Shown in pieces: positions 21,590 to 49,069 of a stretch of 64,000 bases of DNA. Within the stretch, counting starts at the first letter, position 1. Each line of letters starts with the position of its first letter. A program made the translations under genes and the position numbers. This DNA is from Onthophagus taurus (taxonomy: Eukaryota > Arthropoda > Insecta > Coleoptera > Scarabaeidae): positions 15,004,001 through 15,068,000 of the forward strand of contig NC_091968.1 in the NCBI RefSeq assembly GCF_036711975.1. Direction: 5' to 3'. The notes beneath the pieces are model-generated. The model saw only the letters and a program-made list of their open reading frames with translations, searched no databases and had not been told where the DNA came from.

Positions 21590-22073
21590 TGGCGATCCTG
21601 CCAACGCGATTGCCTGCGCGACTCAATTAACATCTAAGAAGACAGAAGAAAAAGAAATATGAAGAAGAAATATAAAGAAGAAAAAGAAATATGAAGAAAA
21701 GAAGAAATATAAAGAAGTAAAAAAAAAATATAAAGAAGAAAAAGAAAAAAAACGAAAACACGAAGAATGTCAATTACTCGATATTTTTCACCTAAAATAA
21801 CATGACTAAGCACCGCTACCACATTCACCATCAACATCATCAAACTATACAATTCCTGACTGGATAAAGATAGAAAAAAATATTAACAGAAAATACTACA
21901 AAGAGTTCTTGAAAATATGCTGATGTGTTTCATTTGGAAACCTATACGCTCACGGTGACAAATGTTTACAAAGAAGCAATTCATTTACAAATATCAACAA
22001 TATCTATTTAGATGAAAATACTTTTTTCTATACTTTTTCAATGTTATATTTATTTAAGTTCTCTATTCTACAT

Positions 22074-22101
22074 GTTTCGAGGATCCAGTCCTCATCTTCA
22101 G
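22074..22101 (-). ncRNA. Hammerhead-like core, inverted copy
   Basis: An identical core on the minus strand, part of the inverted half copy of the Penelope element. Confidence 0.6.
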
Positions 22102-22599
22102 GAAAATTCCTGTACATGAATACAAGATAATCAAATCAAAATTAAGTTTGAAATTTAAAACAGTGTGTAAAAGAAAAGAAAATTAAAATTATTTTTAGGT
22201 TATGTCAATTTTAAAGAAAAATTAAAAATTATTGTGTCCTTATTTCTACTTACGTCAATTTTTGAATAAAAGATAACCATATCCCTCGGATTACAATTCA
22301 AAACTCTTACGACTAAACAATTAAACAGAAATAAACTATTAAAATTGAATCGGAAGATTCTGGAATTCATCGGCATGTATTATGGAACCAGTTTTGGATG
22401 ACGTATTATCGTTATGCTATATATAACAAAATCAAACTTAAATTAAGATTAAAATCAAATACAAATCAAACTTTCTATAAATTGGTGTTGGGTTTGTGAT
22501 GAGTTGTGATGGGAAGTTTTGGAGTTTTGTGGATAGGATGGGAATAGTAGCCAAGGAACCAAAATATTGCAGAATCAAGTCGCTACTTTATCTTGATAC

Positions 22600-23144
22600 T
22601 CTCGTTTATTTTGGTGTTTAGTAGGTGTGAATGGTTGTTTTAGGAATGAATAAATTGGTCTTTGGAAGGTTTGTACTTGTTCGTTAAGGCATACGGTATT
22701 GGGATTGTTAAATATAAATCTTTTAATCTCGTATCCTTCCAGTAATTCCATTAAACGTCCCTTATTAATATTGTGGAGTATGTGTGCATCATTGTTTTCA
22801 TTGAATTCGTGGTCATGATTAAATATTAGGTGTTTACCAAAGTTAGAATTGTCTCTTTTTTTTTATGTTTTATGTTCTTTTATTCGTGTTTTTAGTGCTC
22901 TACCTGTCTCACCTATGTATGTTGCGTTGCAAGTTGTGCATTCCAATTTATATAATCCATTTTTGTCGAGTGTGTTGAACGATTGTTTATTATTTATCAA
23001 GGAATTAGTTAAAGTGTTGTTCGTTTTGAAAGTTATATTAAGATCATATTTTGTAAAAATTTTCTTTATTTTAGTAGTTAAATGTCCTGGGTATTGTATT
23101 GAAGAACAATATGTAGGTTTATTTCTTTGATTACAGGGTATCAA
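22600..23144 (-). pseudogene. Inverted second copy of the GIY-YIG domain
   Basis: The minus strand encodes the end of the RT linker (NKPTYCSSIQYPGHLTTK) running straight into the GIY-YIG block. It is uninterrupted at the spot where the Polinton entered the sense copy, so it shows the pre-insertion sequence CAATACAATACCCAGG. Confidence 0.85.
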
Positions 23145-23199
23145 TGATGTAGTGTTTTGCAGGTGGCACTTTTGTTTTTGTTTGTCAATCAGAGTTCTT

Positions 23200-23997
23200 T
23201 GATTCTAGTTTCATATGACATAACCAATCTATACACTAACATACCTACTGGAGAATCATTGGAAATTATCAGAACCATATTGGAAACTAAACTAAAGGAT
23301 AAAGGAGAAATGACACCATATATAATTTGTTCAAACTATGCATCGAACAAAACTTTTGCCTGTTTAATGATAAAATGTATATGTACAACGAAGGTCTACC
23401 AATGGGTTCACCCCTCAGTGGACTAATAGCTGACATTTTCCTCAATAAACTAGAAAACGACCATATAATAAATGATATCAACCCTTTTAGGAACAAGATC
23501 ATAACATGGAAACGATATGTAGACGACATTTTAGTAATATTTGATACCCGAGACCATTCCATAGCTGAAAATATGCACTCATACCTTAATAAACTACACC
23601 CCAACATAAAATTCACCACAGAAATTGAAAATAATAATAAAATAAACTTTCTTGATGTCGAAATATATAAAATAGACAATGACATACATTACAACATTTA
23701 CAGAAAACCCACACAAACAGACTCAATTATTCCCTATAACTCATTTCAGTCAAACACTCATAAAATGGCAGCAATTCGAACATACTTACATAGAGCCTTT
23801 AATACATATTTAAAACCGGAAAGCTTAAAGAAGGAATTGAACATTATCAAACAGATAACAAAAAACAATAATTTCCCAGAAAACTTAATTGACAAAATGA
23901 TTGACAAACAAAAACAAAAGTGCCACCTGCAAAACACTACTTCATTGATACCCTGTAATCAAAGAAATAAACCTACATATTGTTCTTCAATACAATA
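23200..23997 (+). pseudogene. Penelope-like reverse transcriptase, 5'-truncated and split
   Basis: Blocks in order: SYDITNLYTNIPTGE, a one-base frameshift near 23325, LPMGSPLSGLIADIFL, WKRYVDDILVIFD (active site YVDD), and FLDVEIYK. The frame is then cut by the Polinton at 23998 and would continue into the endonuclease at 42603. The RT N-terminus is missing because the inverted half copy replaces it. Confidence 0.88.
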
Positions 23998-24010
23998 AGT
24001 AGTAGATAAA

Positions 24011-24127
24011 AGCCGATTCTAGAACCTCCTCTCAGAACCTCAGGTCAAGGTCAAGGCCAAGGTCACGTTGAGTGACCATGACCTTGACCTTGCCCTGAGG
24101 TTCTGGGAGGAGGTTCCAGAATCGGCT
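24011..24127. repeat. Terminal palindrome inside the left inverted repeat
   Basis: AGCCGATTCT at 24011 pairs with AGAATCGGCT ending at 24127. The arms are about 55 bases with about five mismatches. The mirror copy lies at about 42467-42583. Each end of the element can therefore fold into a hairpin 13 bases from the tip. Confidence 0.85.
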
Positions 24128-24384
24128 ATTGCAAAGGGGGTCGTTGACCAGTAACCTAGACCTAAACAATGACCTTTACTTTGAGCTCACCTCAGGTCAA
24201 GATCACGTTTAGTGACCATGACCTTGATCAGTAACCTTGACCTGAACAATGACCTTTACTTTGACCTCAACGGAGACCTTGAAGTCAACCTTAATTGTGA
24301 CCATGACGTTGACCTTGTACGTGACCTGAAATGAAGGTTACACGACGTGAGTTCATTGAAAACCCCACTTCGGAGGAGGTATGC

Positions 24385-24393
24385 TTTAAATAG
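24385..24393 (+). promoter_or_regulatory. TATA-like promoter in the left inverted repeat
   Basis: TTTAAATAG in the TIR, upstream of the polymerase ATG at 24442. The identical signal in the right TIR (42201-42209) precedes the gene at 42093, so one promoter sequence drives both outermost genes inward. Confidence 0.5.
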
Positions 24394-24441
24394 CAGATAG
24401 AAAATCGTGTTCAACAGTATTGAAGTAAGAGTGTTGTGAAC

Positions 24442-27400
24442 ATGTTGACCTGCGACGTGTGTTACAAAGAGTTTACTAGACCAGATAATCTTGTGAGACA
24501 TCAACGCACAGCATGTATTGGGAAACGTCGAAAGGTGGAAGAGGATCAACAAGGAGATGTTATAGTGTGTGAAATATGTGATGAACACGTAACCAGACAA
24601 TGTTATTCCTCACATCTGCGCAGCAACAAACATAAACAGAAAGCCTTCGTAATAATAGATGATGGTGTAGAAAAAATAGATTCGATATTTGGAGATAAAA
24701 TATGTAGTTTTAGAGTGAGCGATCATGAACGGAAGTACGTAGACATGAAGGAATTCAGTAACCGAATTAGAGAAAAAGTTATCAGTTTGATACAGTCCGT
24801 GAGGAATGTAAATGGTAGTTTAAAAGTGAATACGGAAATTTTTGGATTGTATTTCATAAATACGAAGGAAGAAGTGGAAATCAAATCATTCAACACAAAA
24901 AATAAAATTATAACAGTAGCCGTAGACTTGTACCAAACATACGAGGACTTTATGGACGAGATTATGGTGAAAATGTCGGAATTCCAAGAACGGGACTCAG
25001 GTAAGAGTATAAGAATAGAAAAGTAGTAAAATGCGAAACTAAAGGCGTTAATACTGCAGGTTGGACCTTGTTGGAAATATTATATCTTGAAGTGAACTGT
25101 AACAAGTTTAATCCTACAAGAGCATCGAGCTACATCGACTTACCGACATCCATAAAAGGGAAGAGAGCGGTAATAAACGTGCAAAATAACGATAATAAGT
25201 GCTTTGCTTGGGCACTGATATCCGCGCTGTACCAACCCACAGGTTTACCGCAAAGAATATCATCATACCCAGATTATAGGGAAACAGAATTAAAGTTTGA
25301 CTGCGTAACATTCCCAGTACCCATCAGAGACATACCAAAATTTGAGGAAGAAAATAACATTTCAATTAACGTCTATGGTATAAATTCTTGGTATAATGGA
25401 GAGAAAATGGTAGATGATATTGTAACTGTATGTATATGTAAACAGAAACGGGAGCGTCATGTAAACTTATTAGTAGTCAGCGACAATTTCGGGAATAACC
25501 ACTATTGTTGGATAAAAAACTTATCTCGACTGATAAATACACAATCATCGACTCATGAACATCAAAGATATATTTGTGAGGGTTGTTTGCAATACTTTTC
25601 AACTGAAGACAAGTTGGTACGACATCAGATGGATGACTGTAAAAAAGTGAAAGCAACAGTACCAAGCGAACAAATAAAAGTGAATAAGTTCGGACATCTA
25701 GAAAAGGAAAATGTTTTACAATTTGAAGGATTTGAAAAAAAAATGAAAGTTCCGTTTGTGGTGTACGCCGATTTCGAGGCGATTCTGAAACCCTTAACGC
25801 CCGAAGAAGGAAAAGTTTACGATGATAATAAACCATATACGGCCCGATGTTTTGAACACGAACCATACGCGTTTGCGTACTACATTAAGTGTGCTTACGA
25901 TGATAACTTATCGAAATTCCGAATATACCGAGGGCGAAACGCTGCTCTGGAATTTATTATAAGATTGGAGAAGGATGTAATAGAGATCTATAAACAACAT
26001 TTGAGGCAAACAAAGGATATGATACCGCTAAGCTGTCTGGACCAATTTGTACATGAACTGAGTTCCGTATGTCACATTTGTGATAAACCAATAAACAAAG
26101 AAGAGAAAGTGTGTGATCACGATCACTTGACAGGATTGTATAGGGGTCCTGCGCATTCCGTCTGCAATATAAATTATAAATTACCGATGTTTATCCCTGT
26201 GTTTTTCCACAACCTGTCGAATTACGATGCCCACATGTTTGTGAAAAGTATTGCCCTAAACAAGGAGGAAGTAGAGGTGATAGCACAAAACAAAGAAAAA
26301 TATATTTCTTTTTCCAAAAAAATAGTTGTCGGAGAAACAACCGATAACAAGGGAAAGAAACGCAAAGTGTTTATGAAAATAAGATTCGTCGACTCGTTTA
26401 GATTTATGGCGAGTTCTTTGGAAAAGTTGGTTTCATATTTGGATGATAAGGATTGTGTGGAAGTGAAAAAAAAATTCAAAGACTCTGAAGAATTTAGATT
26501 GATGCGCCAGAAAGGTGTATTTCCATATTCGTTCGTAGATTCGTTTGAAAAGTTGGAGTATAGTAAATTGCCTGATCATACACAGTTTTACGACATATTG
26601 AGTTCAAGTAATATTTCAAAGGAACAATACTCTAGAGCACAGACTGTATGGAATAAATTTAAGTGTACAACGTTGGGAGAATACAGTGACCTGTATTTGA
26701 CGTCAGATGTGTTAATGTTGACTGACGTCTTTGAAAATTTCAGGACAATATCTTTGGAGAATTACAATCTGGATCCTTGCCATTATTATACTGCGCCCGG
26801 GTTTGGGTGGGATGCTCTGTTAAAAATGACAGGTGTAAAATTAGAATTGTTATCAGACATTGACATGTTACACTTTTTTAAGAAAGGAATTAGAGGCGGT
26901 CTCTGTATGTGTGTAAAACGATCTGCAATAGCAAACAACAAGTTCCTTGACGATTTTAACCCGGAAAAACCATCATCATATATTCTATACTTGGACGCTA
27001 CCAATTTGTATGGGTATGCAATGAGTTGTAAATTACCAACAGGCGGTTTTCGATGGTTGTCGAACCAAGAAATAGCAGATATAGATGTGGAGTGTTTAGA
27101 TGATGAACACCTTGGTTATGTCTTTGAAGTGGATTTGGAGTATCCCGAAAGGTTACACAACCAGCATGATGATCTACCGTTTTGTCCCGAAAACATAATC
27201 GCTCCCGGATCGAAGCATCCTAAGTTGATTGCGAACTTACAAAATAAATCGAAATACATAATTCACTATGTAAACCTACGTGAATGTGTGAAAAAAGGTC
27301 TTAAGCTAACCAAAATACACCGTGCATTGCAATTTCAACAATCGCCGTGGATGAAACTATATATCGATTTTAACTCTGAGAAACGAATGAATGCTACGAA

Positions 27401-28274
27401 TGAATTTGGGAAAAATCATTATAAACAAATGAATAATATCGTGTATGGGAAAACGATGGAAAATGTTGAAAATAGAGTCGATATACGATTAGTGTCACAT
27501 TGGGAGAATCGTTACAGGAGACCCGGTGCAGAAGCTCTTATCGCAAAGCCGACTTTCAAGTCATCGAAAATTTTCTGCCATAATTTGGCAGCCATTGAAA
27601 TGCAGAAGGTGGAGGTCAAATATAACAAACCTCTGTATGTAGGGTTTAGCGTACTGGAATTGTCGAAAGCGGTCATTTATAACTTTTTTTATAATTTTTT
27701 AAAAGAGAAATATGGTGAAAACGTATTATTGTTATATACAGATACGGATTCGTTAATTCTCGAAATATTTACTGAGAATGTATACCAGGATATCAAAGAA
27801 AATATAGAGATGTTCGATACCTCTAATTACAAGTTAAACAACAGACATAATATTCCTCCAGGGCCGCCGATAGTTGGAAAAATGAAAGATGAGTACCCAA
27901 ATACGATATTAACATCGTTTTATGGTACAGGAGCTAAAGCTTATTGTATTAACACTTTGGAAGGAGTTGTCAAGCGTGCCAAGGGTGTGAAAAAGTATGT
28001 TATCGATAAAAACTTAAGTGTTTCAGAATATAAACGGATTATCGAAGATGGAGGTTCTGTGCGAAAAAAGATGTATGTCTTTCGCTCCTCCTATCACACG
28101 ATGTATACAGAACTAAAGAATAAAGTGGCGCTCTCTGCACATGACGATAAACGTTACGTGATGGAGGATGGATGTCATACGTTAGCTTGGGGAAACTATC
28201 TTATTGAAGATCTACGCAGGGAAGATCTTTTGGACAACTTATTGGAGTTGTTAAACGTAAACATGTATGGCTAG
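24442..28274 (+). CDS. POLB: Protein-primed DNA polymerase B, with one intron
   Basis: Replicates the element by protein priming. Exon 1 (24442-25000) and exon 2 (25060-28274) join across a 59-base GT-AG intron to give about 1,257 residues. N-terminal C2H2-type fingers are CDVCYKEF and ICDEHVTRQ; a third, CEGCLQYF, is in exon 2. Exonuclease motif I is YADFEA (about residue 420). A CHIC...CDHDHLTG...CN block at about 523-560 resembles an endonuclease VII-type zinc HNH. Polymerase motifs are YLDATNLYGY (about 830), NNIVYGKT (about 978) and YTDTDS (about 1079). Without splicing exon 1 stops at 25026, and exon 2 has no ATG near its start. The start used is ATG 24442, at the edge of the TIR. An alternative to the intron would be a frameshift. 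Confidence 0.93.
25001..25059 (+). other. Intron in the polymerase gene
   Basis: Donor CAG/GTAAGAGT and acceptor CTGCAG/GTT. Splicing joins a codon split after its first base and leaves the short motif DSGWTLLEI, which fits the conserved family pattern (GW.L) upstream of the first domain. The unspliced frame ends after ten more codons. Confidence 0.8.
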
Positions 28275-28431: not shown

Positions 28432-29367
28432 TTATAATACATCCTTTTTTGCAATCCAAGAATTATGAGAGCTATCCATTCCCAACCATTTCACTCGGAC
28501 TTTATTTCCTTTTCGACGAAGAACTTTTTCAATTAAAAATACATCCGGGTGTTTCACACGTTGTAATTCTTCGTCGTAAAATGCTCCAAGAATGGGTTCT
28601 CCTCTACCATCTTTAATAAGGTAAGTCCTGGGATTAGTATTTTGAACTGTCGCTATGGTGAAAATTTCATTGGACCAAGTTGGTTGGTAACCTTTAGCAA
28701 AAGCGTGTCTGTACTTGCTAATTCGCACGTGTTCCCCCACATTAAATTTATGGTGGTTGGGGTCGACAACTTTAATGGAATTGTATACAGTATTTAACAG
28801 AGCAGATTCATTTCGTCGATTAACAGCTGAAGGTTTCATGTGAATGGTGCGATGTATTGTGTTGTTGTAAGATTTTAGTAATTTGGGTAGTAAGTCTAAC
28901 CAGCGATAATTTCCTTGCATACTAAATTCTTTCCACATTTTATTTTTTAGGGTTCTATTAAACCGTTCGATAATCGAGCTTTTTAAAGTGGAATAGGTGC
29001 TGTAATGATTAATGTTAAGTTGTTCCATTAATTTTTGAAAATCGCTATTGTAAAACTCTTTCCCATTATCGGTTTGTAAGTTGCTCGGAGTAATATTCTT
29101 TTTACTATGCAAAATGTCCTTCATAGCTTGAGTAACCTCTTTCCCAGTTTTGGTTTTGAGTGGTAAGGCCCATGCGTATTTTGAAAAAGCGTTGATAACA
29201 GTCAGTATATACTTGTAACCTTTATTGACCGACGCATATGGGATCATTTCAACCAAATCAGCTTGATAAAGATCCAATAGTCCGTGAAGCAGAACGCGGC
29301 GTCGCCGATAATGTCGTCTCGCAGGTGCATGTAGTTCGTTAACGAGATCTCGCTTAACACTAACCAT
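28432..29367 (-). CDS. INT: Polinton integrase with chromodomain
   Basis: A 311-residue RVE-type integrase that inserts the element and makes the 6-base duplication. Catalytic acids lie in LYQADLVEMIPY (first D), LQTDNGKEFYN (second D) and KSSIIERFNRT (E). The C-terminal 40 residues (FLIEKVLRRKGNKVRVKWLG...SWIAKK) form a chromodomain, which in this family is thought to read chromatin at the target. Its ATG overlaps the stop of the upstream 135-residue gene (TAATG). The N-terminal zinc domain is short: only about 30 residues precede the core. The frame is intact. The second Polinton has the same gene in ruins at 44929. Confidence 0.95.
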   Translation of the reverse strand: MVSVKRDLVNELHAPARRHYRRRRVLLHGLLDLYQADLVEMIPYASVNKGYKYILTVINAFSKYAWALPLKTKTGKEVTQAMKDILHSKKNITPSNLQTDNGKEFYNSDFQKLMEQLNINHYSTYSTLKSSIIERFNRTLKNKMWKEFSMQGNYRWLDLLPKLLKSYNNTIHRTIHMKPSAVNRRNESALLNTVYNSIKVVDPNHHKFNVGEHVRISKYRHAFAKGYQPTWSNEIFTIATVQNTNPRTYLIKDGRGEPILGAFYDEELQRVKHPDVFLIEKVLRRKGNKVRVKWLGMDSSHNSWIAKKDVL

Positions 29368-31044: not shown

Positions 31045-31746
31045 TTACAGTATAATGTACTCATCGAAACCTTTCCGATAGCGTCCGTTATTTTTATCGC
31101 AATCTAAATCAATAACTAATATACCGTGCGGTGTATCCCAACAAGTTCGACAAATTCTGACAAAATCATCCCACGTAATGTCCCCTAGCAAATGATCGTT
31201 GTAAATATGTTTCAAGTTAGTGAGATCTTGTTTAAATAAAACTAAAAGGTTGCAATTGTCACGTAAAAGCTGCTTGGAAATGGCGCTATAACTTTGAGCG
31301 AGTAAAAAAGTATCAACGTTTCTATGACGACCGTATGAAAAATATTCCTTGATAATCTGTTGCTCTGTAGGAGCAATATCATCAAAAATAATAATTGAAT
31401 ATTCTTTCACCTTTGACGGTGGTAGAAATCGTCCGACATCTGAGTATTCATAATAGCCGCAAGAGCGGATAGGTTTAAGTAATTGTCGTAGAAATTCGTA
31501 TTTGATTTGGTAGAGTGAATTAGAGCACAAATATACATTCAAAAAGCGCAACCCGTTGAGAGCTGTCAATAAAGTTAACATTACGTTTGTTTTTCCGGCA
31601 CCCGAAGAACCAATTATCAAACCACGTTTACATTCCCCACCAAATAATTCGCTATGTCGTTTAAATTTATTTGCAGCGAAGTCGTTATGAAGATTACAGA
31701 TTGGTAGTGTTAAAGGTTGGCTAACAAACTTAACGTCTTCAACCAT
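31045..31746 (-). CDS. ATP: FtsK/HerA-type genome packaging ATPase
   Basis: A 233-residue ATPase predicted to pump element DNA into capsids. Walker A is IGSSGAGKTN (about residue 46), Walker B is SIIIFDDIA, and the arginine-rich YFSYGRHRNVDTFLLAQSY follows, as in the A32-like family. It ends with the conserved RYRKGFDEYI. Length is normal. Its homologue in the second Polinton (55669-56107) has lost the Walker A part. The gene starts at ATG 31746 just after a splice-acceptor-like CCGTCAG. Confidence 0.93.
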   Translation of the reverse strand: MVEDVKFVSQPLTLPICNLHNDFAANKFKRHSELFGGECKRGLIIGSSGAGKTNVMLTLLTALNGLRFLNVYLCSNSLYQIKYEFLRQLLKPIRSCGYYEYSDVGRFLPPSKVKEYSIIIFDDIAPTEQQIIKEYFSYGRHRNVDTFLLAQSYSAISKQLLRDNCNLLVLFKQDLTNLKHIYNDHLLGDITWDDFVRICRTCWDTPHGILVIDLDCDKNNGRYRKGFDEYIIL

Positions 31747-34920: not shown

Positions 34921-34927
34921 TTACAAT

Positions 34928-35111
34928 CCCCCCTCCCCCCTCCCCCTCCCCTCCCCCTCCCCTGCCCCACCCCTGCCCCACCCCCCCGCGCGGGCGGTCG
35001 CGCGAAGCGCGGTACGGAGCGGAGCGAAGCGGAGCGTAGTTGAGCCCGCGCGGGGGGGTGGGGCAGGGGTGGGGCAGGGGAGGGGGAGGGGAGGGGGAGG
35101 GGGGAGGGGGG
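34928..35111. repeat. Perfect 67-base C-rich/G-rich palindrome
   Basis: The left arm 34928-34994 (runs of C with single T or A) and right arm 35045-35111 (its exact complement) enclose a 50-base GC-rich loop. The G-rich strand has many G4-G6 runs separated by single bases and can form G-quadruplexes; the arms could also extrude a cruciform. It lies between the 385-residue and 111-residue genes and is by far the most GC-rich spot in the window. Confidence 0.93.
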
Positions 35112-35183
35112 AGGGGGAGGGGGAAGGGGAGGTGAAGAGGTTTCTTTAAATAAAACTCATCAATATGGATAAAAAAATAACAT

Positions 35184-35569: not shown

Positions 35570-36085
35570 TCACCGACTGTCTTTCGCATCCTTGTTTTGC
35601 ACCCCCTCTTCGACAACTTCTTGTAAGTGGCGTACATTGGAAAGAGCGCACATACTTCTTCGTCGCGAGTGAAAAGCACAGCTCGGTATACCCATCTCAA
35701 GTTTATAGATACTACCTTCCAACGCAAATATCGGCGCGGAAATAATATGTCTTAAAAATTTAATTTTTTCAGGTCCTTTAACATACACTTTCTTGACATT
35801 CCGACACAGATATTTGACTATGGCGTCGAATTCCATTGGATGGACAAAACCAACTTTCCAGTCGATGCAATGATGATGTGTCATTAACCAGTTTGCAGTA
35901 TTCCTATATTTAGATGGTAATGAAGCTATACTGCTACTCGGTTGAAAAACGTGGTGGGTTATGCATTTGTTACTATCACATGATGCTAATTCTTTAGGTA
36001 CGAACTGATCTTCGTTGACCATGAAACCTTGTATATCGAGAATTATGTATTGAGTTTTATTTGAATACATCTTGCTTCCGTACAT
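35570..36085 (-). CDS. Polinton DxQGF-family protein, copy 1
   Basis: A protein of 171 residues from ATG 36085. It shares an ordered motif set with the gene at 41611: I-x-D-x-QGF, then KEL, then HH.FQP, a WxxxH block, VKG.EK, and a C-terminal CAFH...CA block. I have seen this pattern in arthropod repeat-derived proteins. Spaced acidic residues after a beta strand would fit an RNase H-fold nuclease, but no catalytic set is proven. Two diverged copies in one element imply two separate roles. Confidence 0.65.
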   Translation of the reverse strand: MYGSKMYSNKTQYIILDIQGFMVNEDQFVPKELASCDSNKCITHHVFQPSSSIASLPSKYRNTANWLMTHHHCIDWKVGFVHPMEFDAIVKYLCRNVKKVYVKGPEKIKFLRHIISAPIFALEGSIYKLEMGIPSCAFHSRRRSMCALSNVRHLQEVVEEGVQNKDAKDSR

Positions 36086-36260
36086 CAACACGATTATCCA
36101 TACTATGCAGCCGTAGAAATCTGTCGCACAACTTATACTCTACGACTTTTTTTTGTTTACGCTGAATATAGAAGTCTCACATTTCGGATGATGAGCTACG
36201 GGTGCGATGCGGCTCAGGATCCGATCCAACTACACACTACCAACCCTTCTTTCCCCATAC

Positions 36261-37523
36261 TCAAGTCATTTGTTTGACGATTTTTGTTAGTGGAGAATAT
36301 TGAAACGCCTTATCATGTAAAACTAAACAGTATGCTGTGGTACCATCAGGAATCGGATTTTTTGTCGTAAATTCTATCCGTATTTCTACCCCACTTTTGT
36401 GTAGCGCTTCTGCTTGATATGTACAATCAATTCCAATCAGTGGATAATTTTCAATAAATTGTTTCGGAGTGAGTAATGGTTCTCCTTCCTTCCCATAGTA
36501 GGACTTTTGAAAGCGTGTATACATGTCATATAACACTGCGACACGATTACTATCAAAGTCCACGTTCAGATTATCGTATGGGTAGCGTTCACCGTTTAGG
36601 AATACCGTCAAATTGGTGAGTTTTACATTATCAAAGGTTGCCATGTTCGCCAACTGTTTTCCTTTCTTCTTTGTTTGAAACCCAATTATTATAAATCTAG
36701 GTGTTTCCAACTGCGGAGCTGTTTTCACAGCCCATGAATGCTTTGTTGTTTGAGGTAAAGAAGGATATTCATGTACTTCCCAACTGCGAAAAGGTATTTG
36801 CAGATCAATATTTCGTCCTGCTATTTTTGTTAGAGCTAATTGTTCTCGTAAGCCTACGGCTAGATGGGGCATTCTCCACACAACTTTATCGATTTTTAAC
36901 TGTAACGGTTCTTCTACCGTATTCACAAGCACATCATTATCATCATTATTACGAATTAACACTAGCTCTTGTCTCACATTCATCACAATTGTTTTAAAAT
37001 CTTCAGCAAACCCTATTAATGTCTTTAGCGGTACACTCAATCCAAAATTTCCATTTTTATCCATTATTGCATCCGTTACAGGGGATGTTGGGACCACTTG
37101 ACCTAGCAGATCCTCGCCCATGTTCCAACCTGCGTTCGCCAACTTTATTATATCGTGAGGGGTATACGAAAAGTATCCTTTCATACATGATGTTAACCCC
37201 ACGTTTCTCACTCCATCTATTTGAACACCATTTATAAGATAGCGAATATCACTGAACATAAACGCTACAGGATTATTTATCAATTTTGCAGTTGCACTAG
37301 CATCTTTTGTTGCTTTACCACTCGCATCCAGTTTACGTACGCTCCCTTCCACATACAAAAAACTTTCATGAGGCAATGTGTAATTGTCTATTTCGGGTAT
37401 GCCTATACGAATTTCATCATTGTTACCGAAGCTAGTAGAACCAAACGGTTGATGGGAATGATATTCGTAACTTACAATCGAGTTATCTACTTTTATTTTC
37501 TCCGTGACGTTTAAGGACTCCAT
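36261..37523 (-). CDS. PY: Major capsid protein (double jelly roll)
   Basis: A 420-residue protein corresponding to Polinton PY, the double jelly-roll major capsid protein expected to form hexon-like trimers. Recognisable blocks are LPHESFLYVEGSV, RNVGLTSCMKGYFSY, GNFGLSVPLKTLIGFAED, WEVHEYPSLP, and a C-terminal end VEIRIEFTTKNPIPDGTTAY. Its ATG abuts the TAA of the upstream 56-residue gene with no gap, and the whole set Pro, PX, 56-residue, PY is packed within 1.3 kb up to this start. A second, broken copy on the plus strand at 56369-59091 aligns over its length. No introns or breaks are seen. Confidence 0.93.
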   Translation of the reverse strand: MESLNVTEKIKVDNSIVSYEYHSHQPFGSTSFGNNDEIRIGIPEIDNYTLPHESFLYVEGSVRKLDASGKATKDASATAKLINNPVAFMFSDIRYLINGVQIDGVRNVGLTSCMKGYFSYTPHDIIKLANAGWNMGEDLLGQVVPTSPVTDAIMDKNGNFGLSVPLKTLIGFAEDFKTIVMNVRQELVLIRNNDDNDVLVNTVEEPLQLKIDKVVWRMPHLAVGLREQLALTKIAGRNIDLQIPFRSWEVHEYPSLPQTTKHSWAVKTAPQLETPRFIIIGFQTKKKGKQLANMATFDNVKLTNLTVFLNGERYPYDNLNVDFDSNRVAVLYDMYTRFQKSYYGKEGEPLLTPKQFIENYPLIGIDCTYQAEALHKSGVEIRIEFTTKNPIPDGTTAYCLVLHDKAFQYSPLTKIVKQMT

Positions 37524-38475: not shown

Positions 38476-38874
38476 TTACACGGATACTTCCTTGGTATTT
38501 AAACTATCTAAGAAATGCAGACACAATTGTCCACAATTTGTTTGATCTTCTTTTTGATATCGTCGATAATTATACCTCACAATATTTCTCCCCCCATCCG
38601 ATATAAAATACTTCTCCACTTCAATCGGTGGTCGTAAATCTCCATAACTGTCAAAGTAGTTAACATTTACACCATCCTTGTTGTAAGCTGTCCAGTGAGT
38701 ACCGGGACCCGTACGATTATCAAGATTTATTATCCCACTCTCTCGTTTTCGGATTTTCTTCGGTAAATTGTTTCTCATGTACACCCCACGAAAGTTTAAC
38801 AGATCAAGCGCTCGTGCATATCGCCTTAACTCTACATCCGTTAAAGAATGTTGGGGTATTTTTATTAGTTTTTT
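38476..38874 (-). CDS. PRO: Adenovirus-type cysteine protease, likely made by -1 frameshift
   Basis: A maturation protease of the C5/Ulp1 fold that would cut capsid precursors. Catalytic residues: His in GTHWTAY, Asp in YFDSYGD, Gln/Cys in NCGQLCLHF. The first ATG in frame is 38778, but family-like sequence (LTDVELRRYARALDLL, NFRGVYMR) extends upstream with no ATG up to the A-run at 38868-38874. There the frame is exactly -1 relative to the phospholipase gene, at heptamer A AAA AAC. I therefore give the region downstream of the slip site. If initiated at 38778 the product would be only 100 residues and lack the first helix. It lies 20 bases upstream of the minor capsid ATG. Confidence 0.85.
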   Translation of the reverse strand, partial: KKLIKIPQHSLTDVELRRYARALDLLNFRGVYMRNNLPKKIRKRESGIINLDNRTGPGTHWTAYNKDGVNVNYFDSYGDLRPPIEVEKYFISDGGRNIVRYNYRRYQKEDQTNCGQLCLHFLDSLNTKEVSV

Positions 38875-39767
38875 GCTACAGTTTTATAACCACAACCCTT
38901 TTTATATGGATTAATAAACATTCCTGTACCAATTTTGTTCGCCCTCTTGGTGCGTTTTAGTCGCTTTGATTTTCGTGATACCGTTTTCATGACTAGTCCG
39001 CAACCTCGCTTATATGGTTTAATATACAAACCGCTGCCGATCGCTTTTGGTTCCATAGCCCGATTGTGACGTTGGGCTTCTTGTAACTGCTCCCTTGCTA
39101 TTTTTGCTTCGTTTACGGTTTTTGCAATAGCTGCTGCACCTCCGCCTAAAGAACCGAGAGCACCCAAAGCTGCAAGTATTAAGGGTAAAAAACCTCCCGT
39201 CTTGGGAATCTTGATTATTTTTCCGCGCGGTTTAAGTATTCTACCTTGATAAGGTTTCAACAGATTGTAACCCACTTGTACATCTCCCTTTGTATTCGTA
39301 CTGTTGGTCTGTGCAATCGCTCGCCGCACTAAGTTCATTGCCTGCGTAAACGACAATTTACCGCCACGTTTCAACTTCTGACGAGTTGTCCCTCTACGTC
39401 TTAGGGCACGAATTTGCATTCCCATACCCATTATTGTTTTTCCTTTCATTATCGTTGACACTAACGCCGACGATAGTCGCTCTCCTAAGCTTGCGTCTTT
39501 ACTTCTCAACCGCTCTTTCGCTGTCTTATACAACTCTTTATCGGCTATGTGTCGCTCAGCTAAATTCGATGTCGCTGCGTAGGCAATATCATGCGTTTTA
39601 CAGGCGTCGTCTAATTTATTCACTCCCTGATCTCCACGAACTAATCTCTTTACCAATTTGGTTCCCGGACCGCAATAATTATAACCTGGCAAATGTAGTT
39701 CTATCGGAAGCTTATTGATTAATGTATTCACAATACCTCGACCAGACCGTTTGCTTGATCGATGCAT
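38865..39767 (-). CDS. Phospholipase A2-type capsid protein with membrane segment
   Basis: A 300-residue protein. Residues about 25-75 have the parvovirus VP1-type phospholipase A2 pattern: YNYCGPGT (calcium loop) and DDACKTHDIAYA (catalytic His-Asp). A basic middle follows, then a hydrophobic segment (FLPLILAALGALGSLGGGAA) and two copies of a G-G-hY-PYK-GCG motif (SGLYIKPYKRGCG and TGMFINPYKKGCG) separated by a Lys/Arg cluster. By family analogy it may disrupt endosomal membrane and bind DNA inside particles. It starts at ATG 39767 and stops at TAA 38865 directly after the slippery heptamer leading into the protease. The second Polinton keeps only the PLA2 domain (55421-55672). Confidence 0.88.
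   Translation of the reverse strand: MHRSSKRSGRGIVNTLINKLPIELHLPGYNYCGPGTKLVKRLVRGDQGVNKLDDACKTHDIAYAATSNLAERHIADKELYKTAKERLRSKDASLGERLSSALVSTIMKGKTIMGMGMQIRALRRRGTTRQKLKRGGKLSFTQAMNLVRRAIAQTNSTNTKGDVQVGYNLLKPYQGRILKPRGKIIKIPKTGGFLPLILAALGALGSLGGGAAAIAKTVNEAKIAREQLQEAQRHNRAMEPKAIGSGLYIKPYKRGCGLVMKTVSRKSKRLKRTKRANKIGTGMFINPYKKGCGYKTVAKN
38868..38874 (-). promoter_or_regulatory. Putative -1 ribosomal frameshift site
   Basis: On the minus strand the last sense codons of the phospholipase gene are GCA AAA AAC before TAA, giving the heptamer A AAA AAC in the correct register. Slipping by -1 bypasses the TAA and enters the protease frame. Nine bases downstream, TACCCC (38858-38853) can pair with GGGGTG (38787-38782), a possible stimulatory stem. 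Confidence 0.6.
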
Positions 39768-41610: not shown

Positions 41611-42093
41611 TTAATCTAAATCCATTTTTAAAAATTTTAAAATTAATTTAACATTTTCAATTGCACAACTGCTTTCCGATTTATAATGATATGCGCAAGA
41701 ATTTTGACTCAACGAAAGCAAAGGGCAATATATATTATGTTGTAAATTAATAATCACTGGCTTTACCGATGATAATAGGTCTCTCAATACCTTTTCTTTT
41801 TGAGATCCCTTTACAAACACCACCTCCACTCCGCATGTATGCTGTTCCAGAATGTCTTTCAGTTGATTATAGGGCACATATCCATTCTCGTAATGCAAAT
41901 GGTGTAAGTTATTCTCCTCCCAACGCACTTGTCGACATTCTCGCTTATTGAGTCTTTCATAACTTATATCAGGTTGAAATATGAAATGGGAAATCGACTC
42001 ACCATCACCGATAGCCAATTCTTTAACTCGAAATCCCGAAGATAAAGTAAACCCTTGCATATCGATGACTTTAATTGGATTTCTCGATGCCAT
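41611..42093 (-). CDS. Polinton DxQGF-family protein, copy 2
   Basis: A 160-residue paralogue of the gene at 35570. It keeps VIDMQGF, KELAIGDGE, HFIFQP, the W..NNLHHLHYENGYV block, VFVKGSQKEKVL and NSCAYHYKSESSCA. Identity is roughly 25-30 percent by eye. It is the outermost gene on the right and its ATG (42093) lies 58 bases inside the TIR edge, so the TIR promoter at 42201-42209 should drive it. An RNase H-like nuclease is possible but unproven. Confidence 0.7.
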   Translation of the reverse strand: MASRNPIKVIDMQGFTLSSGFRVKELAIGDGESISHFIFQPDISYERLNKRECRQVRWEENNLHHLHYENGYVPYNQLKDILEQHTCGVEVVFVKGSQKEKVLRDLLSSVKPVIINLQHNIYCPLLSLSQNSCAYHYKSESSCAIENVKLILKFLKMDLD

Positions 42094-42150: not shown

Positions 42151-42596
42151 ATGTTCACAACACTCTTACTTCAATACTGTTGAACACGATTTTCTATCTG
42201 CTATTTAAAGCATACCTCCTCCGAAGTGGGGTTTTCAATGGCCTCACGTCGTGTAACCTTCATTTCAGGTCACGTACACGGTCAATGTAATGGTCACAAT
42301 TAAGGTTGACTTCAAGGTCTCCGTTGAGATCAAAGTAAAGGTCATTGTTCAGGTCAAGGTTACTGATCAAGGTCATGGTCACTAAACGTGATCTTGACCT
42401 GAGGTGAGCTCAAAGTAAAGGTCATTGTTTAGGTCAAGGTTACTGGTCAACGACCCCCTTTGCAATAGCCGATTCTGGAACCTCCTCCCAGAACCTCAGG
42501 GCAAGGTCAAGGTCATGGTCACTCAACGTGACCTTGGCCTTGGCCTTGACCTGAGGTTCTGAGAGGAGGTTCTAGAATCGGCTTTTATCTACTACT
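42151..42596 (-). repeat. Right terminal inverted repeat of the Polinton
   Basis: Mirror of the left repeat with about eight mismatches. The same TATA-like signal (42201-42209) faces inward toward the 160-residue gene at 42093. Confidence 0.93.
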
Positions 42597-42602
42597 ACAA
42601 TA

Positions 42603-43110
42603 CCCAGGACATTTAACTACTAAAATAAAGAAAATTTTTACAAAATATGATCTTAATATAACTTTCAAAACGAACAACACTTTAACTAATTCCTTGATAA
42701 ATAATAAACAATCGTTCAACACACTCGACAAAAATGGAGTATATAAATTGGAATGCACAACTTGCAACGCAACATACATAGGTGAGACAGGTAGAGCACT
42801 AAAAACACGAATAAAAGAACATAAAACTAGAGACAATTCTAACTTTGGTAAACACCTAATATTTAATCATGACCACGAATTCAATGAAAACAATGATGCA
42901 CACATACTCCACAATATTAATAAGGGACGTTTAATGGAATTACTGGAAGGATACGAGATTAAAAGATTTATATTTAACAATCCCAATACCGTATGCCTTA
43001 ACGAACAAGTACAAACCTTCCATAGACCAATTTATTCATTCCTAAAACAACCATTCACACCTACTAAACACCAAAATAAACGAGAGTATCAAGATAAAGT
43101 AGCGACTTGA
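42603..43110 (+). pseudogene. Penelope-like GIY-YIG endonuclease domain
   Basis: The C-terminal part of the interrupted Penelope protein. It has the CXXC-containing YKLECTTCNATYIGETGR block (the GIY-YIG core is Y-L...YIG), then RIKEH and a stop at 43110. Apart from the loss of its 5' half to the insertion, the frame is open. The inverted copy at 22863-23144 differs at very few positions. Confidence 0.88.
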
Positions 43111-43637
43111 TTCTGCAATATTTTGGTTCCTTGGCTACTATTCCCATCCTATCCACAAAACTCCCAAACTTCCCATCACAACTCATCACAAACCCAACAC
43201 CAATTTATAGAAAGTTTTTAAAAACAAAATTTTTAAATTTAAGTCATTTAACCATCCGAATTCAATGTCGCCAATTGTATTTGATTTTAATCTTAATTTA
43301 AGTTTGATTTTGTTACATATAGCATAACCATAATACGTCATCCAAAACTGGTTCCATAATACATGCCGATGAATTCCAGAATCTTCCGATTCAATTTTAA
43401 TAGTTTATTTCTGTTTAATTGTTTAGTCGTAAGAGTTTTGAATTGTAATCCGAGGGATATGGTTATCTTTTATTCAAAAATTGACGTAAGTAGAAATAAG
43501 GACACAATAATTTTTAATTTTTCTTTAAAATTGACATAACCTAAAAATAATTTTAATTTTCTTTTCTTTTACACACTGTTTTAAATTTCAAACTTAATTT
43601 TGATTTGATTATCTTGTATTCATGTACAGGAATTTTC

Positions 43638-43665
43638 CTGAAGATGAGGACTGGATCCTCGAAAC
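43638..43665 (+). ncRNA. Hammerhead ribozyme-like core of the Penelope element
   Basis: CTGAAGA (43638-43644), then a perfect helix GAGGA/TCCTC with loop CTGGA, then GAAAC (43661-43665). This is the CUGANGA - stem II - GAAA hammerhead core in the sense strand of the element, near its 3' end. Stem I could form between TTTTC before the core and GAATA after it. The inverted copy is at 22074-22101 on the minus strand. Confidence 0.65.
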
Positions 43666-44322
43666 ATGTAGAATAGAGAACTTAAATAAATATAACATTG
43701 AAAAAGTATAGAAAAAAGTATTTTCATCTAAATCAACACAATGTTACGAAAACCCAAAAACAATTATTAATATCTATTTACGTTAAATCGTATCGACTAC
43801 CTCAATCATCATTATCATCAATACAAAACGGAAAAATGATACCAAGGAATTTGATCCAATACTCCACTAAAGGCTTGATCACCCTGGTATGGTGAATTGA
43901 TTAAAAACGCGAAATATGCCAGTAAATAATCTTTAATGATTGGAACAGAGTTTGAGGCCTTAAGGAAAAATAATAATTGAGAAGATAATGTTATATATAA
44001 TGAAAATAAAGAAGTTCTACAAAAATGGGATCCTGGATCAGCGTCAGCATTAAATGCGTCGTTGACAGACCTTTTTAACATATGTAGAAGGAAAATGTAG
44101 AAAGTAAAGAATCAAGCATTATTTATTATTAAAAGTGATGCGCATCGCTATTAAAAGAATAGGAACAAGAATATGGTGAAAGATGGCCCAAGAATGTAAG
44201 CTATTAAGAGATGTTAAAGTATTGATGATTTGAGGACTCTATAGTTAATTTTGAAAATAAAAAGAAGAAAAAAAAATTATTATTATATAAACAAACCATT
44301 TTTTTTTATTTAGCGGGTAAGG

Positions 44323-45487: not shown

Positions 45488-45885
45488 TACATGCTGTTTC
45501 CTTTCCGTTTTAGAATCTTTTCAATCAACTGTATGTCAGGATACAGTCCGTTGTAATTCTTCAGTATAGAAAGAGTGTGATGACTCCTTTAATGTCATCA
45601 CCTTTCAAATCTTGTAATAAATACGTCAATGGATTACTATATTGAATCTTAACAATTTTAAAAACTTCATTGCTCCAGTTAGGAGTATACCCTTCGGTGA
45701 ACACACCACGTTGTTTCGATATTCTTACAAAGTCATTCAAATGAAATTTTGTGTGTAATGTTTGACTTTGATAATGTGTTTTCTATTATAAACAGTACGC
45801 AATGGCTTTTCCTCATCCACCTCTATTGGTTTCATACCTGTAGTGGAATGCTTGCGGGTATTATATGTTAATAAAATTTGCGGTA

Positions 45886-46025
45886 ATAAGAATATTTGTA
45901 TACTTGCTTTGAGAATATGCGATTTTTCTTCACTCAACAAAATGATCTTCTTGTGAATATATAAGAATATGATAAGCTTGAGCCAAGAGTAATAATCTTC
46001 GTTCAAGAATATATTTCTCTTTGTG
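45886..46025. mobile_element. Partial second copy of the same MITE
   Basis: 140 bases nearly identical to 45347-45487, the right end of the MITE. Its left boundary is ragged and target sequence is lost, so it may be a deleted insertion or a gene-conversion product. Confidence 0.75.
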
Positions 46026-46400
46026 CAGATTAAACCTTTTAAAGTTCTATTTAAACGTTCAACGATAGATGCTTTTAATAAGCTAAACGTAGAGTAGTGA
46101 TTAATTTTGAATTTACTCATAAGTGAGATAAAATCTTTGTTATAAAATTCTTTTCCTTGATCGGTTTGAAGGTTTTTTGGTACGTTAGCATCCTTTAAAA
46201 TACTTTTCATTGCTTTAGTAACATCTTTATCCGATTTAGTTTTTACCGGAACAGCCCATGCATATTTGCTAAACACATCAATTACGACGAGTATATAACG
46301 ATAACCACTATTTTGTCGTGCATAAGGTATCATATCTACTAAATCAGCCTAGTATAAATTATTTATGCCTTTATTCGAGCAGGTTTATGAAGTTCTTCAG

Positions 46401-46799
46401 CTAATTTTTTTTTAATATCAGAGGACATGTTAGTATGATTTTAACAAACAGTGTATTAATCGTCGCAGTAGGAGATGGAATAAATTTTAATCTATCACCT
46501 TTCTTCAATTTGATACCCTTCCCATTTGAGCTATCATAAATCCTATTGTTTACTATATGAGTGGTGTCCGATGGTGCAATAGTGATAGAGTAAATTTCTC
46601 CTGATTCAATAGGAAAAATATAATATTTTTTGAAATTACTCAGCGCATAACTATGTCCAGCTTTCGCACCAGTCAAAGTAATATGCAAATAAGAATAATA
46701 GTTATGTTCTATTGAGGAGGCGGAGGAGGAAGAAATATGATGTCCGAACTTGTGGATAGTAATAACTAAAATGATATAATGTATTGTAGGTTTATACAA
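46401..46799 (-). pseudogene. Homologue of the 135-residue Polinton protein, truncated
   Basis: Retains IHKFGHHI, YLHITLTGA and KGIKLKKGDRLKF. Its N-terminus is cut off by the BEL LTR at 46800. It keeps the place next to integrase seen in the intact element. Confidence 0.7.
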
Positions 46800-47560: not shown

Positions 47561-49069
47561 ATGACAGATAAACTCGTGAAACACACATTACGGCGTAACG
47601 TTTTATATAACCGTTTAACCGAATCCATAGTCCTTGGACAAGCTCTTTCATCTGATCCTATCCAAAACCTAATTTTTCGTGAACGAGCCCAAGATGCTGA
47701 AGAAACCTATAAGGAATTTAAGTCAATTCACAATCAGATTATTGGTTTAATTGACGAGGATGACTTTTCAACGCATGACGACATTCGACTTAAAGCTGAT
47801 ACAGCTTATTTTACCATCAAAGCCATATTACATAAGACCTTTCCTCCCTCTGTCTCCGAAGCAGATGATGTTTCGTCGCCATTGACCCCTAGACTTAACA
47901 AATTAGTGTTACCTATTTTTGGAGGTAATCACAAGGAATGGCATACCTTTTTTGATCTTTTTCGTACCATGGTACACGAAAACAAATCTATCGCTGCAAT
48001 TGCTAAGTACCAATATCTTCTTACATTTTTAACTGGTGAAGCATTTAATCTATTAAAGGGTCTACCCGTAACAGATGCTAATTATGAGGTAGCGTATAAT
48101 ACCTTGAAAAAGCGTTATCAAAATAAGCGTCATTTAGCGACATTGTACTTTAATGAAATTATCGCTTTGAAACCATTAAAAGACGAGTCATCTAAATGTT
48201 TACGAAGCTTGATTGATGCCTTCCAAGAGAATGTTGAAGGTTTTCGGATTTTAGGCTTCCCTGTAGATCAATGGGACTTTTTATTATTCAATATCCTTCT
48301 TCAGAAATTAAATACATCCACAAAAACTTCGTTTGAATCTGAGCATACTACTGTGGATATTCCAACTTATGCTCAACTGACGGATTTTCTTGAAAAAAGA
48401 GCCAAAGCGTTAGAATCGGTGTTATTAACCTCAAATGAGAAATCGTCAATTAATTCAGCGAAATTAAACTTTAGAACAAAATTGATTTTGTGAAACTTAG
48501 AGATTGAAGAAAGGACTAACTCACCAACGGTTAAATGCATATTATGCAATGATATTCATCCAATTTATCGGTGCTCTAATTTTACATCCAAATCAGCTGA
48601 AGAACGATTATCCATTGCTAGAGACCAGAATTTATGCCGGAACTGTTTGAGTCGACGAAATAACACTCATAATTGTTCATCGTCTCACAAATGTCGTACA
48701 TGCAGTCAGCATCATCACACGTTGCTCCATTTCAAAATGCCAAATTCGCCATCTGCTCATGTCAAAACATCCTGCAATAAAATTCAAACACCAATTAGAG
48801 AAAACAGTCAAAATATTTTATTACCTATTGCTACCGTAAACATCCAAGATCTCTTCGGAAGATTACATCGTGTGAAAGCTCTAATCGACTCCGGTAGCAT
48901 GGCCAATTTCATTACCTCTACTCTTTCCAAACGTCTTCAGTTACCAAGAAGGTATAATTCATCTTTGGAGATATATGGATTAAATTCGATGACGTCGATT
49001 TGTAACAGGGGTTCCGTCGATTGTTCCATTCAACCGATTCATTCATCAAAATTCACCTTGAAAAATTAA
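47561..49069 (+). pseudogene. gag: BEL gag, zinc knuckles and protease with one nonsense codon
   Basis: Starts at ATG 47561. Gag core (LPIFGGNHKEWHTFFDLF, AKYQYLLTFLTGEAFNLL) runs to a single in-frame TGA at 48491-48493. The same frame continues with CILCNDIHPIYRC, CRNCLSRRNNTHNC knuckles and protease active site ALIDSGSMANFI. It shifts frame near 49060. A lone stop between gag and pol could in principle be read through, but later frame breaks indicate decay. Confidence 0.88.

What the first reader, a model, noticed from the sequence alone, without database searches (positions are those of the whole stretch)
38476..39767. Polinton protease appears to be expressed by -1 frameshifting from the phospholipase gene
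Seen: the phospholipase frame ends GCA AAA AAC TAA, giving the heptamer A AAA AAC (minus strand 38874-38868) in perfect register. The -1 frame from that point is open straight into the protease with no stop, and conserved-looking N-terminal protease sequence has no ATG until 38778. TACCCC at 38858 can pair with GGGGTG at 38787 after a 9-base spacer. Known: this heptamer is among the most efficient slip sites in retroviruses and coronaviruses. Inference: a capsid-protein-to-protease fusion like retroviral Gag-Pro would put the protease into particles. I know of no report of this for Polintons.
Basis: partly seen in the sequence, partly recalled or inferred. Interest (0 to 1): 0.88.

Follow-up and report, generated by a model that had tools for sequence, protein, structure and literature searches.

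The report
Likely ribosome slip for transposon protease
In a virus-like DNA transposon of a dung beetle, the protease that would mature the particle has no usable start of its own and appears to be made when a share of ribosomes slip back one base at the end of the neighbouring phospholipase gene, an arrangement best known from retroviruses.

Summary
In the window's Polinton (Onthophagus taurus) the phospholipase (PLA2) frame ends GCA AAA AAC TAA. The protease (PRO) lies in the -1 frame, open through the slip, with no ATG until 38778, inside the fold. I grouped the genome's PRO copies into ten families (nine others 47-69% identical to the window's). Eight keep A AAA AAC in upstream register with PRO at -1 although neighbouring codons have drifted. 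One (C) has U UUU UUA in register instead. One (E) has no slip site but a PRO ATG overlapping the upstream stop. Outside this genome, 108 of 120 listed PLA2 homologues carry Lys-Asn within their last six residues (shuffled mean 5); the residue before KN always has a codon ending in A (110 of 110). Four protein pairs, judged same-contig by equal contig length, fit only a -1 overlap at AAAAAA[C/T]. A and B each have an 8-bp stem starting 8 nt downstream; family I has its own hairpin; the rest show no clear stimulator. No translation data were available; packaging of the protease is inference. One 2024 preprint suggests Hexon-Adenain frameshift fusions in adintoviruses; my searches found nothing on this junction.

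The parts
38865..39767 (-). upstream (zero-frame) gene: PLA2 domain protein, 300 aa, with hydrophobic segment and GxGLYxKPYKxGxG-like repeats at its C-terminus
   Evidence: PF08398 E 1.5e-14
39513..39701 (-). PLA2-like domain (PF08398), residues 23-85
38868..38874 (-). slippery heptamer A AAA AAC in PLA2 register
   Evidence: conserved
38862..38867 (-). zero-frame stop TAA, followed by a second TAA
38860..38867 (-). 8-nt spacer (includes the stop codons)
38852..38859 (-). 5' arm AUACCCCA of candidate stimulatory stem
   Evidence: family B has AUACCUCG at the same distance
38781..38788 (-). 3' arm UGGGGUGU of candidate stimulatory stem
38476..38874 (-). -1 frame: slip codons plus adenain-like protease PRO, open throughout
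   Evidence: AlphaFold2 mean pLDDT 91; profile match to adenain
38779..38867 (-). PRO N-terminus (helix 11-20, most of strand 26-31) encoded without any PRO-frame ATG
38776..38778 (-). first in-frame ATG of PRO, last residue of the first beta strand
36261..37523 (-). major capsid protein of the same element (double jelly roll)
   Evidence: PF21738 E 4.8e-105
31045..31746 (-). packaging ATPase (Pox_A32-like) of the same element
28432..29367 (-). integrase (rve; chromo match below its cut-off) of the same element
22006..24443 (+). left inverted-repeat region (matched arms plus an unmatched stretch about 23099-23997)
42151..43733 (-). right inverted-repeat region; four matched arms of 459, 446, 421 and 232 nt, 96-100% complementary to the left

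Best explanation
The junction is a programmed -1 ribosomal frameshift site. Most ribosomes end at the PLA2 stop and make the PLA2 (entry/minor capsid-type) protein. On A AAA AAC a fraction slip back one base, miss the stop and continue in the -1 frame, making a PLA2-PRO fusion that carries the adenain-like protease. In the window's family and family B an RNA stem that begins 8 nt downstream probably raises the slip rate. The result is PRO made in a fixed minor ratio to, and at first tethered to, a protein of the particle. Shown by sequence: heptamer, register, open -1 frame, lack of an ATG, conservation, equivalent stems in A and B. Inferred: that slipping happens, its rate, and that the fusion enters particles and is cleaved.
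For: Register and open frames. Families: NNA AAA AAC in upstream register and PRO at -1 in A, B, D, F, G, H, I, J, with the zero-frame stop 0, 0, 8, 1, 1, 1, 5, 1 codons later, so it is not an inherited stop-codon context; C has T TTT TTA in register. Copies: 68 of 79 distinct places; heptamer intact in every row of the pattern scans, A 63 of 63, B 66 of 66, C 40 of 40, F/H 36 of 36 (register not rechecked in each row, and most copies near-identical). Codon choice: AAC is 34% of Asn codons in these ORFs but is used at the site in 8 of 8 families. Other assemblies: KN in the last 6 residues of 108 of 120 listed PLA2 homologues against 5.05 on average (max 13 in 1000 trials) in shuffled tails; in all 110 with KN in the last 15 the preceding residue has an A-ending codon, while 22% of tail residues have none; 156 of 181 in the combined set have KN in the last 12. 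Of 20 KN-less tails left after setting aside 5, 14 have [LVI]FL, the protein trace that U UUU UUA would leave, against 20 of 156 with KN (Fisher p 1.4e-7). Of 26 PRO homologues with at least 30 residues before FRG, 23 have KK[LPHQR], the -1 reading of AAAAAAC. Four protein pairs allow only the -1 frame, 13-15 residues, heptamer AAAAAA[C/T], two of them AAAAAAC uniquely; shuffled tails never exceeded 4. PRO needs its pre-ATG residues: conserved across families, helix 11-20 and strand 26-31 in blocks of mean pLDDT 95-97, profile aligned to adenain 1avp from chain residue 6 (E 0.00095). No PRO-frame ATG before FRG in the A, B, D, F, G, H, J representatives. Stem: A and B each 8 bp at spacer 8, shuffle P 0.015 and 0.029. 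A_AAA_AAC is among the most shifty heptamers on mammalian ribosomes (PMC5009743, passages) and is the MMTV, IAP, BLV and HTLV site (PMC3835772 table, passages).
Against: No reporter, ribosome profiling, RNA or peptide data. Family E (2 of 2 copies read) has no heptamer and starts PRO at an ATG overlapping the upstream stop. Families C, F, G, H have no clear downstream structure, D's low energy lies far downstream in a decayed copy, and no significant pseudoknot was found in any family (J marginal, P 0.07). C (2 of 3 representatives) and I have a PRO-frame ATG within the helix. Some homologues elsewhere may have a PRO-frame start within the overlap (proteins beginning MW..FKKL; start codon unknown), and 3 of 26 lack KK[LPHQR]. 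All named non-bacterial proteins in the capped lists are from beetles (that these genera are beetles is recalled), so the conservation is within one clade, not a set of independent origins.
Confidence: 0.9

Rival explanations
1. PRO is translated from its own AUG (38778) by leaky scanning or reinitiation after the PLA2 stop.
For: An in-frame ATG exists at 38778, and the Met (FRG[VI][YF]M) is in 9 of 10 family representatives, lost only in the decayed D copy; 37 of 120 listed PRO homologues are predicted to start at it. Family E does start PRO at an AUG overlapping the upstream stop.
Against: In A this start removes helix 11-20 and most of strand 26-31, residues conserved across families and kept inside the protein by E's own ATG (22 codons before FRG). 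Two out-of-frame ATGs intervene. It explains neither the conserved heptamer nor the -1 register.
Confidence: 0.04
2. Splicing joins PRO to an upstream exon with a start codon.
For: Family B's PLA2 protein is annotated by NCBI as 'isoform X1' (P0125), so some transcript complexity is annotated; the host is a eukaryote.
Against: The -1 frame is open only a few codons upstream of the heptamer in A, B, F, H, J. Splicing gives no reason for A AAA AAC in register, for U UUU UUA in C, or for the A-ending codon rule. No splice-site model was run.
Confidence: 0.04
3. PLA2 and PRO were fused or separated by chance indels in decayed copies, and the frame relation is an accident.
For: Individual copies with indels exist, two of them with both frames in one ORF (L019, L089).
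Against: These are single copies against 68 of 79 distinct places, ten families and four decoded pairs from other assemblies.
Confidence: 0.01
4. KN is a protein motif of the PLA2 C-terminus and its nucleotide form is incidental.
For: KN is very common at the C-terminus.
Against: The preceding residue varies (S, P, Q, K, A, T, R, I) but always allows an A-ending codon; AAC is used against codon preference; proteins without KN tend to have [LVI]FL, and C has T TTT TTA instead.
Confidence: 0.02

Closest known systems
Retroviral gag-pro -1 frameshifting (MMTV, IAP, BLV, HTLV)
   Same: Same heptamer A AAA AAC, -1 direction, structural protein followed by maturation protease; spacers of 6-8 nt in the table of PMC3835772 (passages; column headings not seen) and 8 nt here; that paper raised the loop limit to 85 nt for the BLV/HTLV group, and the A/B stem here also encloses a long stretch.
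   Different: DNA transposon/virus; aspartic protease there (recalled), adenain-like cysteine protease here; upstream protein is PLA2/entry-type, not Gag; no pseudoknot found.
HIV-1 gag-pol slip site U UUU UUA
   Same: Family C carries the same heptamer in register.
   Different: No stable structure found after it in C; the upstream protein is a 147-aa hydrophobic protein.
Adintovirus Hexon-Adenain ('Hexain') and Penton frameshift suggestion (PMC11071296, section 16 read whole)
   Same: Same group of elements, same protease type, -1 frameshift proposed from KnotInFrame.
   Different: There the upstream gene is the major capsid protein and the section gives no alignment or conservation; here the upstream gene is the PLA2/hydrophobic protein and the site is shown conserved.
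Insect Mavericks with PLA2-bearing CAP and PRO (Sf Maverick 1/2, PMC5803895)
   Same: Small tandem ORFs including PLA2-CAP and adenain-like PRO (section 11 part 1 of 2 and passages).
   Different: The paper reports separate ORFs; its two uses of 'frameshift' concern errantiviruses. No DNA of these elements was available here.

Membership tests
Programmed -1 ribosomal frameshift site (X XXY YYZ class) | Slippery heptamer in zero-frame register | tested here: met
Programmed -1 ribosomal frameshift site (X XXY YYZ class) | Downstream gene in -1 frame, open through the site, without its own start | tested here: met
   (7 of 10 families have no ATG before FRG in the representatives read; C in 2 of 3 and I have an ATG within the helix; E has a proper ATG)
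Programmed -1 ribosomal frameshift site (X XXY YYZ class) | Evolutionary conservation of site and register | tested here: met
Programmed -1 ribosomal frameshift site (X XXY YYZ class) | Stimulatory RNA structure after a short spacer (typically 6-9 nt, PMC3835772) | tested here: inconclusive
   A and B 8-bp stem at 8 nt; I hairpin at 9 nt (z -5.2); J marginal; C, F, G, H none; D decayed
Programmed -1 ribosomal frameshift site (X XXY YYZ class) | Measured frameshift product | not testable with these tools
   no expression data
Retroviral Gag-Pro type expression | Structural protein fused to maturation protease by frameshift | tested here: inconclusive
   gene order, frames and protease fold fit; role of the PLA2 protein in particles not tested
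Retroviral Gag-Pro type expression | Retroviral gag and aspartic protease homology | tested here: not met
   PLA2 PF08398 upstream; for the protease no Pfam match in the window copy, C48/C5 matches in 12 and 9 of 36 aligned members
Polinton/Maverick (adintovirus-like) element | Double jelly-roll capsid, packaging ATPase, rve integrase, adenain-like protease | tested here: met
   (PF21738, PF04665, PF00665; chromo below its cut-off)
Polinton/Maverick (adintovirus-like) element | Long terminal inverted repeats | tested here: met
   outermost arms 22006-22464 and 43275-43733, 100% complementary; about 1.6 kb matched in four arms, 96-100%
Polinton/Maverick (adintovirus-like) element | Protein-primed PolB | tested here: inconclusive
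   1068-aa ORF 25068-28274; Pfam shows Endonuclease_7, a domain also listed for Sf Maverick POLB; the PolB domain itself did not reach E 0.01

The most novel reading that the evidence does not exclude
Insect Polintons as a group express their maturation protease by -1 frameshifting out of a membrane-entry (PLA2/hydrophobic) minor capsid protein: a Gag-Pro-like logic in a double-stranded DNA virus lineage. It is kept while the slip site itself is exchanged (A AAA AAC, U UUU UUA, perhaps A AAA AAA) and occasionally replaced by stop-start overlap. The fusion would tether the protease to the entry protein inside the particle, a covalent counterpart of the adenovirus pairing of protease with the C-terminal peptide of protein VI (that adenovirus fact is recalled, not from a call).
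Probability: 0.55. Interest if true: 0.9.

Novelty: new variant of a known kind. Interest (0 to 1): 0.82.

Why it matters
How a dsDNA virus-like transposon sets the dose of its protease and gets it into the particle is open, and Maverick particles had not been observed by 2021 (start of the abstract of PMC8097293 in the search listings). A frameshift fusion gives a concrete answer with a testable ratio, and its maintenance by selection would imply that these elements made particles in their history. It would extend the Gag-Pro expression logic to the lineage thought to link adenoviruses, virophages and giant viruses. It also warns that gene finders truncate PRO in such elements: 37 of 120 listed PRO homologues are predicted to start at the internal Met.

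Tried and rejected
Own-AUG, splicing, indel-accident and protein-motif explanations were weighed (rival explanations). Scans of viral contigs and genome contigs with PRO alignment A1 found no relatives, so DNA from other species could not be read; protein-level tests were used instead. The first pseudoknot script returned zero even for shuffles and is discarded; the corrected one recovered an artificial control and found no significant pseudoknot. A second in-register TTTTTTA inside the window's PLA2 gene is not listed at that place in the other family ORFs examined. The small tree has 10 of 14 inner branches open and does not show which slip site is ancestral. Rows dropped before counts: 5 tails judged truncated or odd by eye (P0144, P0146, P0207, P0244, P0257) before the Fisher table (a 15th GLFL protein, P0248, was missed by the regular expression and counted as without); 21 loci that repeat a place already fetched, named by me from the place lists, before the 79-place count. 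The 11 exceptions of 79 are E copies (L045, L096), copies truncated, replaced or fetched short upstream (L014, L059, L064) and copies with local indels or a stop (L013, L018, L019, L022, L060, L089). The pattern scans allow substitutions only and cannot show indel copies. The same-contig pairing rests on equal contig lengths, not on contig names.

Full report
What is there. The window lies in the genome of the dung beetle Onthophagus taurus: a homologue 99% identical to the window's PLA2 protein is named so by NCBI and its contig length equals that of G000 contig C11. Bases 22006-43733 are bounded by inverted repeats, 100% complementary over the outermost 459 nt and 96-100% over about 1.6 kb in four arms. 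Between them lie a double jelly-roll capsid gene, a packaging ATPase and an integrase, an adenain-like protease (PRO) and a 300-aa protein with a PLA2 domain: a Polinton/Maverick.

The junction. On the minus strand PLA2 ends GGT TGT GGT TAT AAA ACT GTA GCA AAA AAC TAA TAA. A AAA AAC (38874-38868) is in register. The -1 frame runs without a stop to 38476. Upstream of the heptamer the -1 frame is open for only three codons, so the stretch in which a slip can work is short and the heptamer lies in it. The first PRO-frame ATG is 38778. In the predicted fold (mean pLDDT 91) this Met is residue 31, the last of the first strand (26-31), after helix 11-20. A profile of the family aligns to adenain from chain residue 6 (E 0.00095). 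PRO begun at 38778 would therefore lack part of its fold.

Families in the same genome. Genome searches with five PRO queries each reached the limit of 150 scored matches, so copy numbers are lower bounds. I grouped the copies by identity into ten families; nine representatives are 47-69% identical to the window's PRO. Eight families (A, B, D, F, G, H, I, J) have NNA AAA AAC in the upstream frame and PRO at -1. The codons before it differ (TVA, TSS, RDS, KQQ, KTQ, KKQ, KKS, RRQ) and the stop follows after 0, 0, 8, 1, 1, 1, 5 and 1 codons. Family C has GTT TTT TTA, the U UUU UUA heptamer, in register; its subgroup C2 also has an in-register A AAA AAA. Family E has neither; PRO starts at the ATG of AATGA, overlapping the upstream stop. 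In C the upstream protein is 147 aa and in E 159 aa, both without a Pfam match; E has a separate 282-aa PLA2 ORF (PF08398, E 1.8e-14), while in C the next ORF upstream in the 1.1 kb read is a Pox_A32-type ATPase on the other strand. Of 79 distinct places read, 68 have a slip heptamer in register with both frames open, 53 AAAAAAC and 15 TTTTTTA. In substitution-tolerant scans the heptamer is intact in 63 of 63 A, 66 of 66 B, 40 of 40 C and 36 of 36 F/H matches. These copies are mostly near-identical and count as few events.

Other assemblies. No DNA was reachable, so I used proteins. If the site is kept, the upstream protein should end near x-K-N with x having an A-ending codon. Of the 120 listed of 848 PLA2 homologues, 108 have KN in the last six residues; shuffled tails give 5.05 on average and at most 13 in 1000 trials. 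The residue before KN is S, P, Q, K, A, T, R or I in all 110 with KN in the last 15; 22% of tail residues have no A-ending codon. By my arithmetic the chance is about 1e-12 if sites were independent, which they are not fully. A third search from a different alignment listed 120 of 3715 hits, 61 of them new; 46 of these 61 have KN in the last 12, and 156 of 181 in the union. Among 20 KN-less tails left after setting aside five, 14 have the [LVI]FL motif that T TTT TTA would encode, against 20 of 156 with KN (Fisher p 1.4e-7), and four more have KKK. This suggests exchange of slip sites but is not DNA evidence, and the KN-less proteins may be one clade. On the PRO side, 23 of 26 listed homologues with at least 30 residues before FRG have KK[LPHQR], the -1 reading of AAAAAAC; P0019, P0041 and P0051 do not. 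Named sources in the lists are Onthophagus, Popillia, Aquatica, Anoplophora, Pyrocoelia, Aromia, Tribolium and Exocentrus (beetles, recalled) plus two bacterial labels that I take for contamination.

Two-frame decoding. For four PLA2/PRO pairs with equal contig length I asked whether any DNA could encode both the PLA2 tail and the PRO start. Only the -1 frame works, over 13-15 residues, and it forces AAAAAA[C/T] at KN, uniquely AAAAAAC in two pairs. Five further pairs whose predicted PRO starts downstream of the overlap gave no decoding, as expected. Of 400 pairings with shuffled tails 395 gave no overlap and none exceeded 4 residues.

Stimulator. In A an 8-bp stem (AUACCCCA/UGGGGUGU) starts 8 nt after the heptamer; in B AUACCUCG/CGGGGUAU starts at the same distance. 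Dinucleotide shuffles reach these scores in 1.5% and 2.9%. The innermost pair is A-U in A and G-C in B. The GGGG of the 3' arm sits two bases apart relative to the aligned codons (CGT GGG GTG against CGG GGT ATA, my reading), so protein coding alone does not explain the pairing; for the same reason the pairs are equivalent by structure, not strictly homologous columns. The A region folds better than shuffles (z -3.5) and family I has a hairpin at 9 nt (z -5.2). D's low energy lies far downstream in a decayed copy. B as a whole, C, F, G, H are ordinary (z -1.4 to 0.9) and J is in between (z -2.1). No significant pseudoknot was found (J P 0.07). The stimulator is thus supported for A/B, plausible for I, and unknown for the others.

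Codon choice. In representative upstream ORFs AAC is 34% of Asn codons and AAA 74% of Lys codons, yet all eight families use AAA AAC at the site. AAT would be expected more often without selection on the nucleotides.

Comparison with the known. A_AAA_AAC is among the most shifty heptamers on mammalian ribosomes (PMC5009743, passages) and serves MMTV, IAP, BLV and HTLV with spacers of 6-8 nt as I read the table (PMC3835772, passages). This element works like Gag-Pro but is not a retrovirus. Searches for Polintons: polinton + 'ribosomal frameshifting' gave 1 paper, on a weevil virome, irrelevant. Polinton + frameshift gave 41 papers, 25 listed, of which I looked up the 'frameshift' passages of ten; apart from PMC11071296 none concerns programmed frameshifting in Polintons. 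Maverick/polinton/slippery (any two) gave 146 papers, 12 listed, none of those with 'slippery'. Polinton + 'phospholipase A2' gave 7, three looked up by passages. PMC11071296 section 16 (read whole) proposes in two sentences Penton isoforms and Hexon-Adenain fusions by -1 frameshift in adintoviruses. The founding adintovirus paper was not held.

Limits. Nothing here shows that ribosomes slip. The conservation is within insect, mainly beetle, elements. Family E shows another way of coupling PRO to the upstream gene. Whether PLA2-PRO is packaged or cleaved is inference from gene identity.

Noticed in passing
L073 (1866-2345, 2395-3243, 1492-1869, minus), L045, L096: Family E splits the PLA2 domain from the hydrophobic GxGLYxKPY protein and starts PRO at an ATG overlapping that protein's stop (AATGA), suggesting stop-start coupling in place of frameshifting.
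   Followed up: partly
L029 195-980 (minus) and 1097-1540 (+): Family C has a Pox_A32-type ATPase on the opposite strand directly upstream of the hydrophobic protein and no PLA2 ORF in the 1.1 kb read, so its gene order differs from the window's element.
   Followed up: partly
window 39186-39192 (minus, codons 192-194 of PLA2): A second in-register T TTT TTA (GGT TTT TTA) inside the window's PLA2 gene; not listed at that place in the other family ORFs examined.
   Followed up: partly
L019 and L089: Two genomic copies (B and G-like) in which a local indel leaves the PLA2 and PRO frames in one ORF.
   Followed up: no
window 35570-36091 and 41611-42093 (minus): Two ORFs look alike by eye (D-x-QGF ... 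KELA ... HxxFQP) and match no Pfam family; function unknown.
   Followed up: no
window 45737-46799 (minus): An rve integrase ORF and a short ORF beside the element, possibly remains of a second Polinton.
   Followed up: no
window 47561-52051 (+): ORFs ending in an rve/H2C2 integrase, probably a BEL/Pao-type retrotransposon (type name from memory).
   Followed up: no
window 34927-35129: C-rich/G-rich near-perfect palindrome with arms of about 70 nt inside the element.
   Followed up: no
P0109, P0208, P0274: Polinton proteins recorded under Enterobacter cloacae complex sp. 2DZ2F20B and a Pseudogracilibacillus MAG; most likely insect contamination.
   Followed up: no
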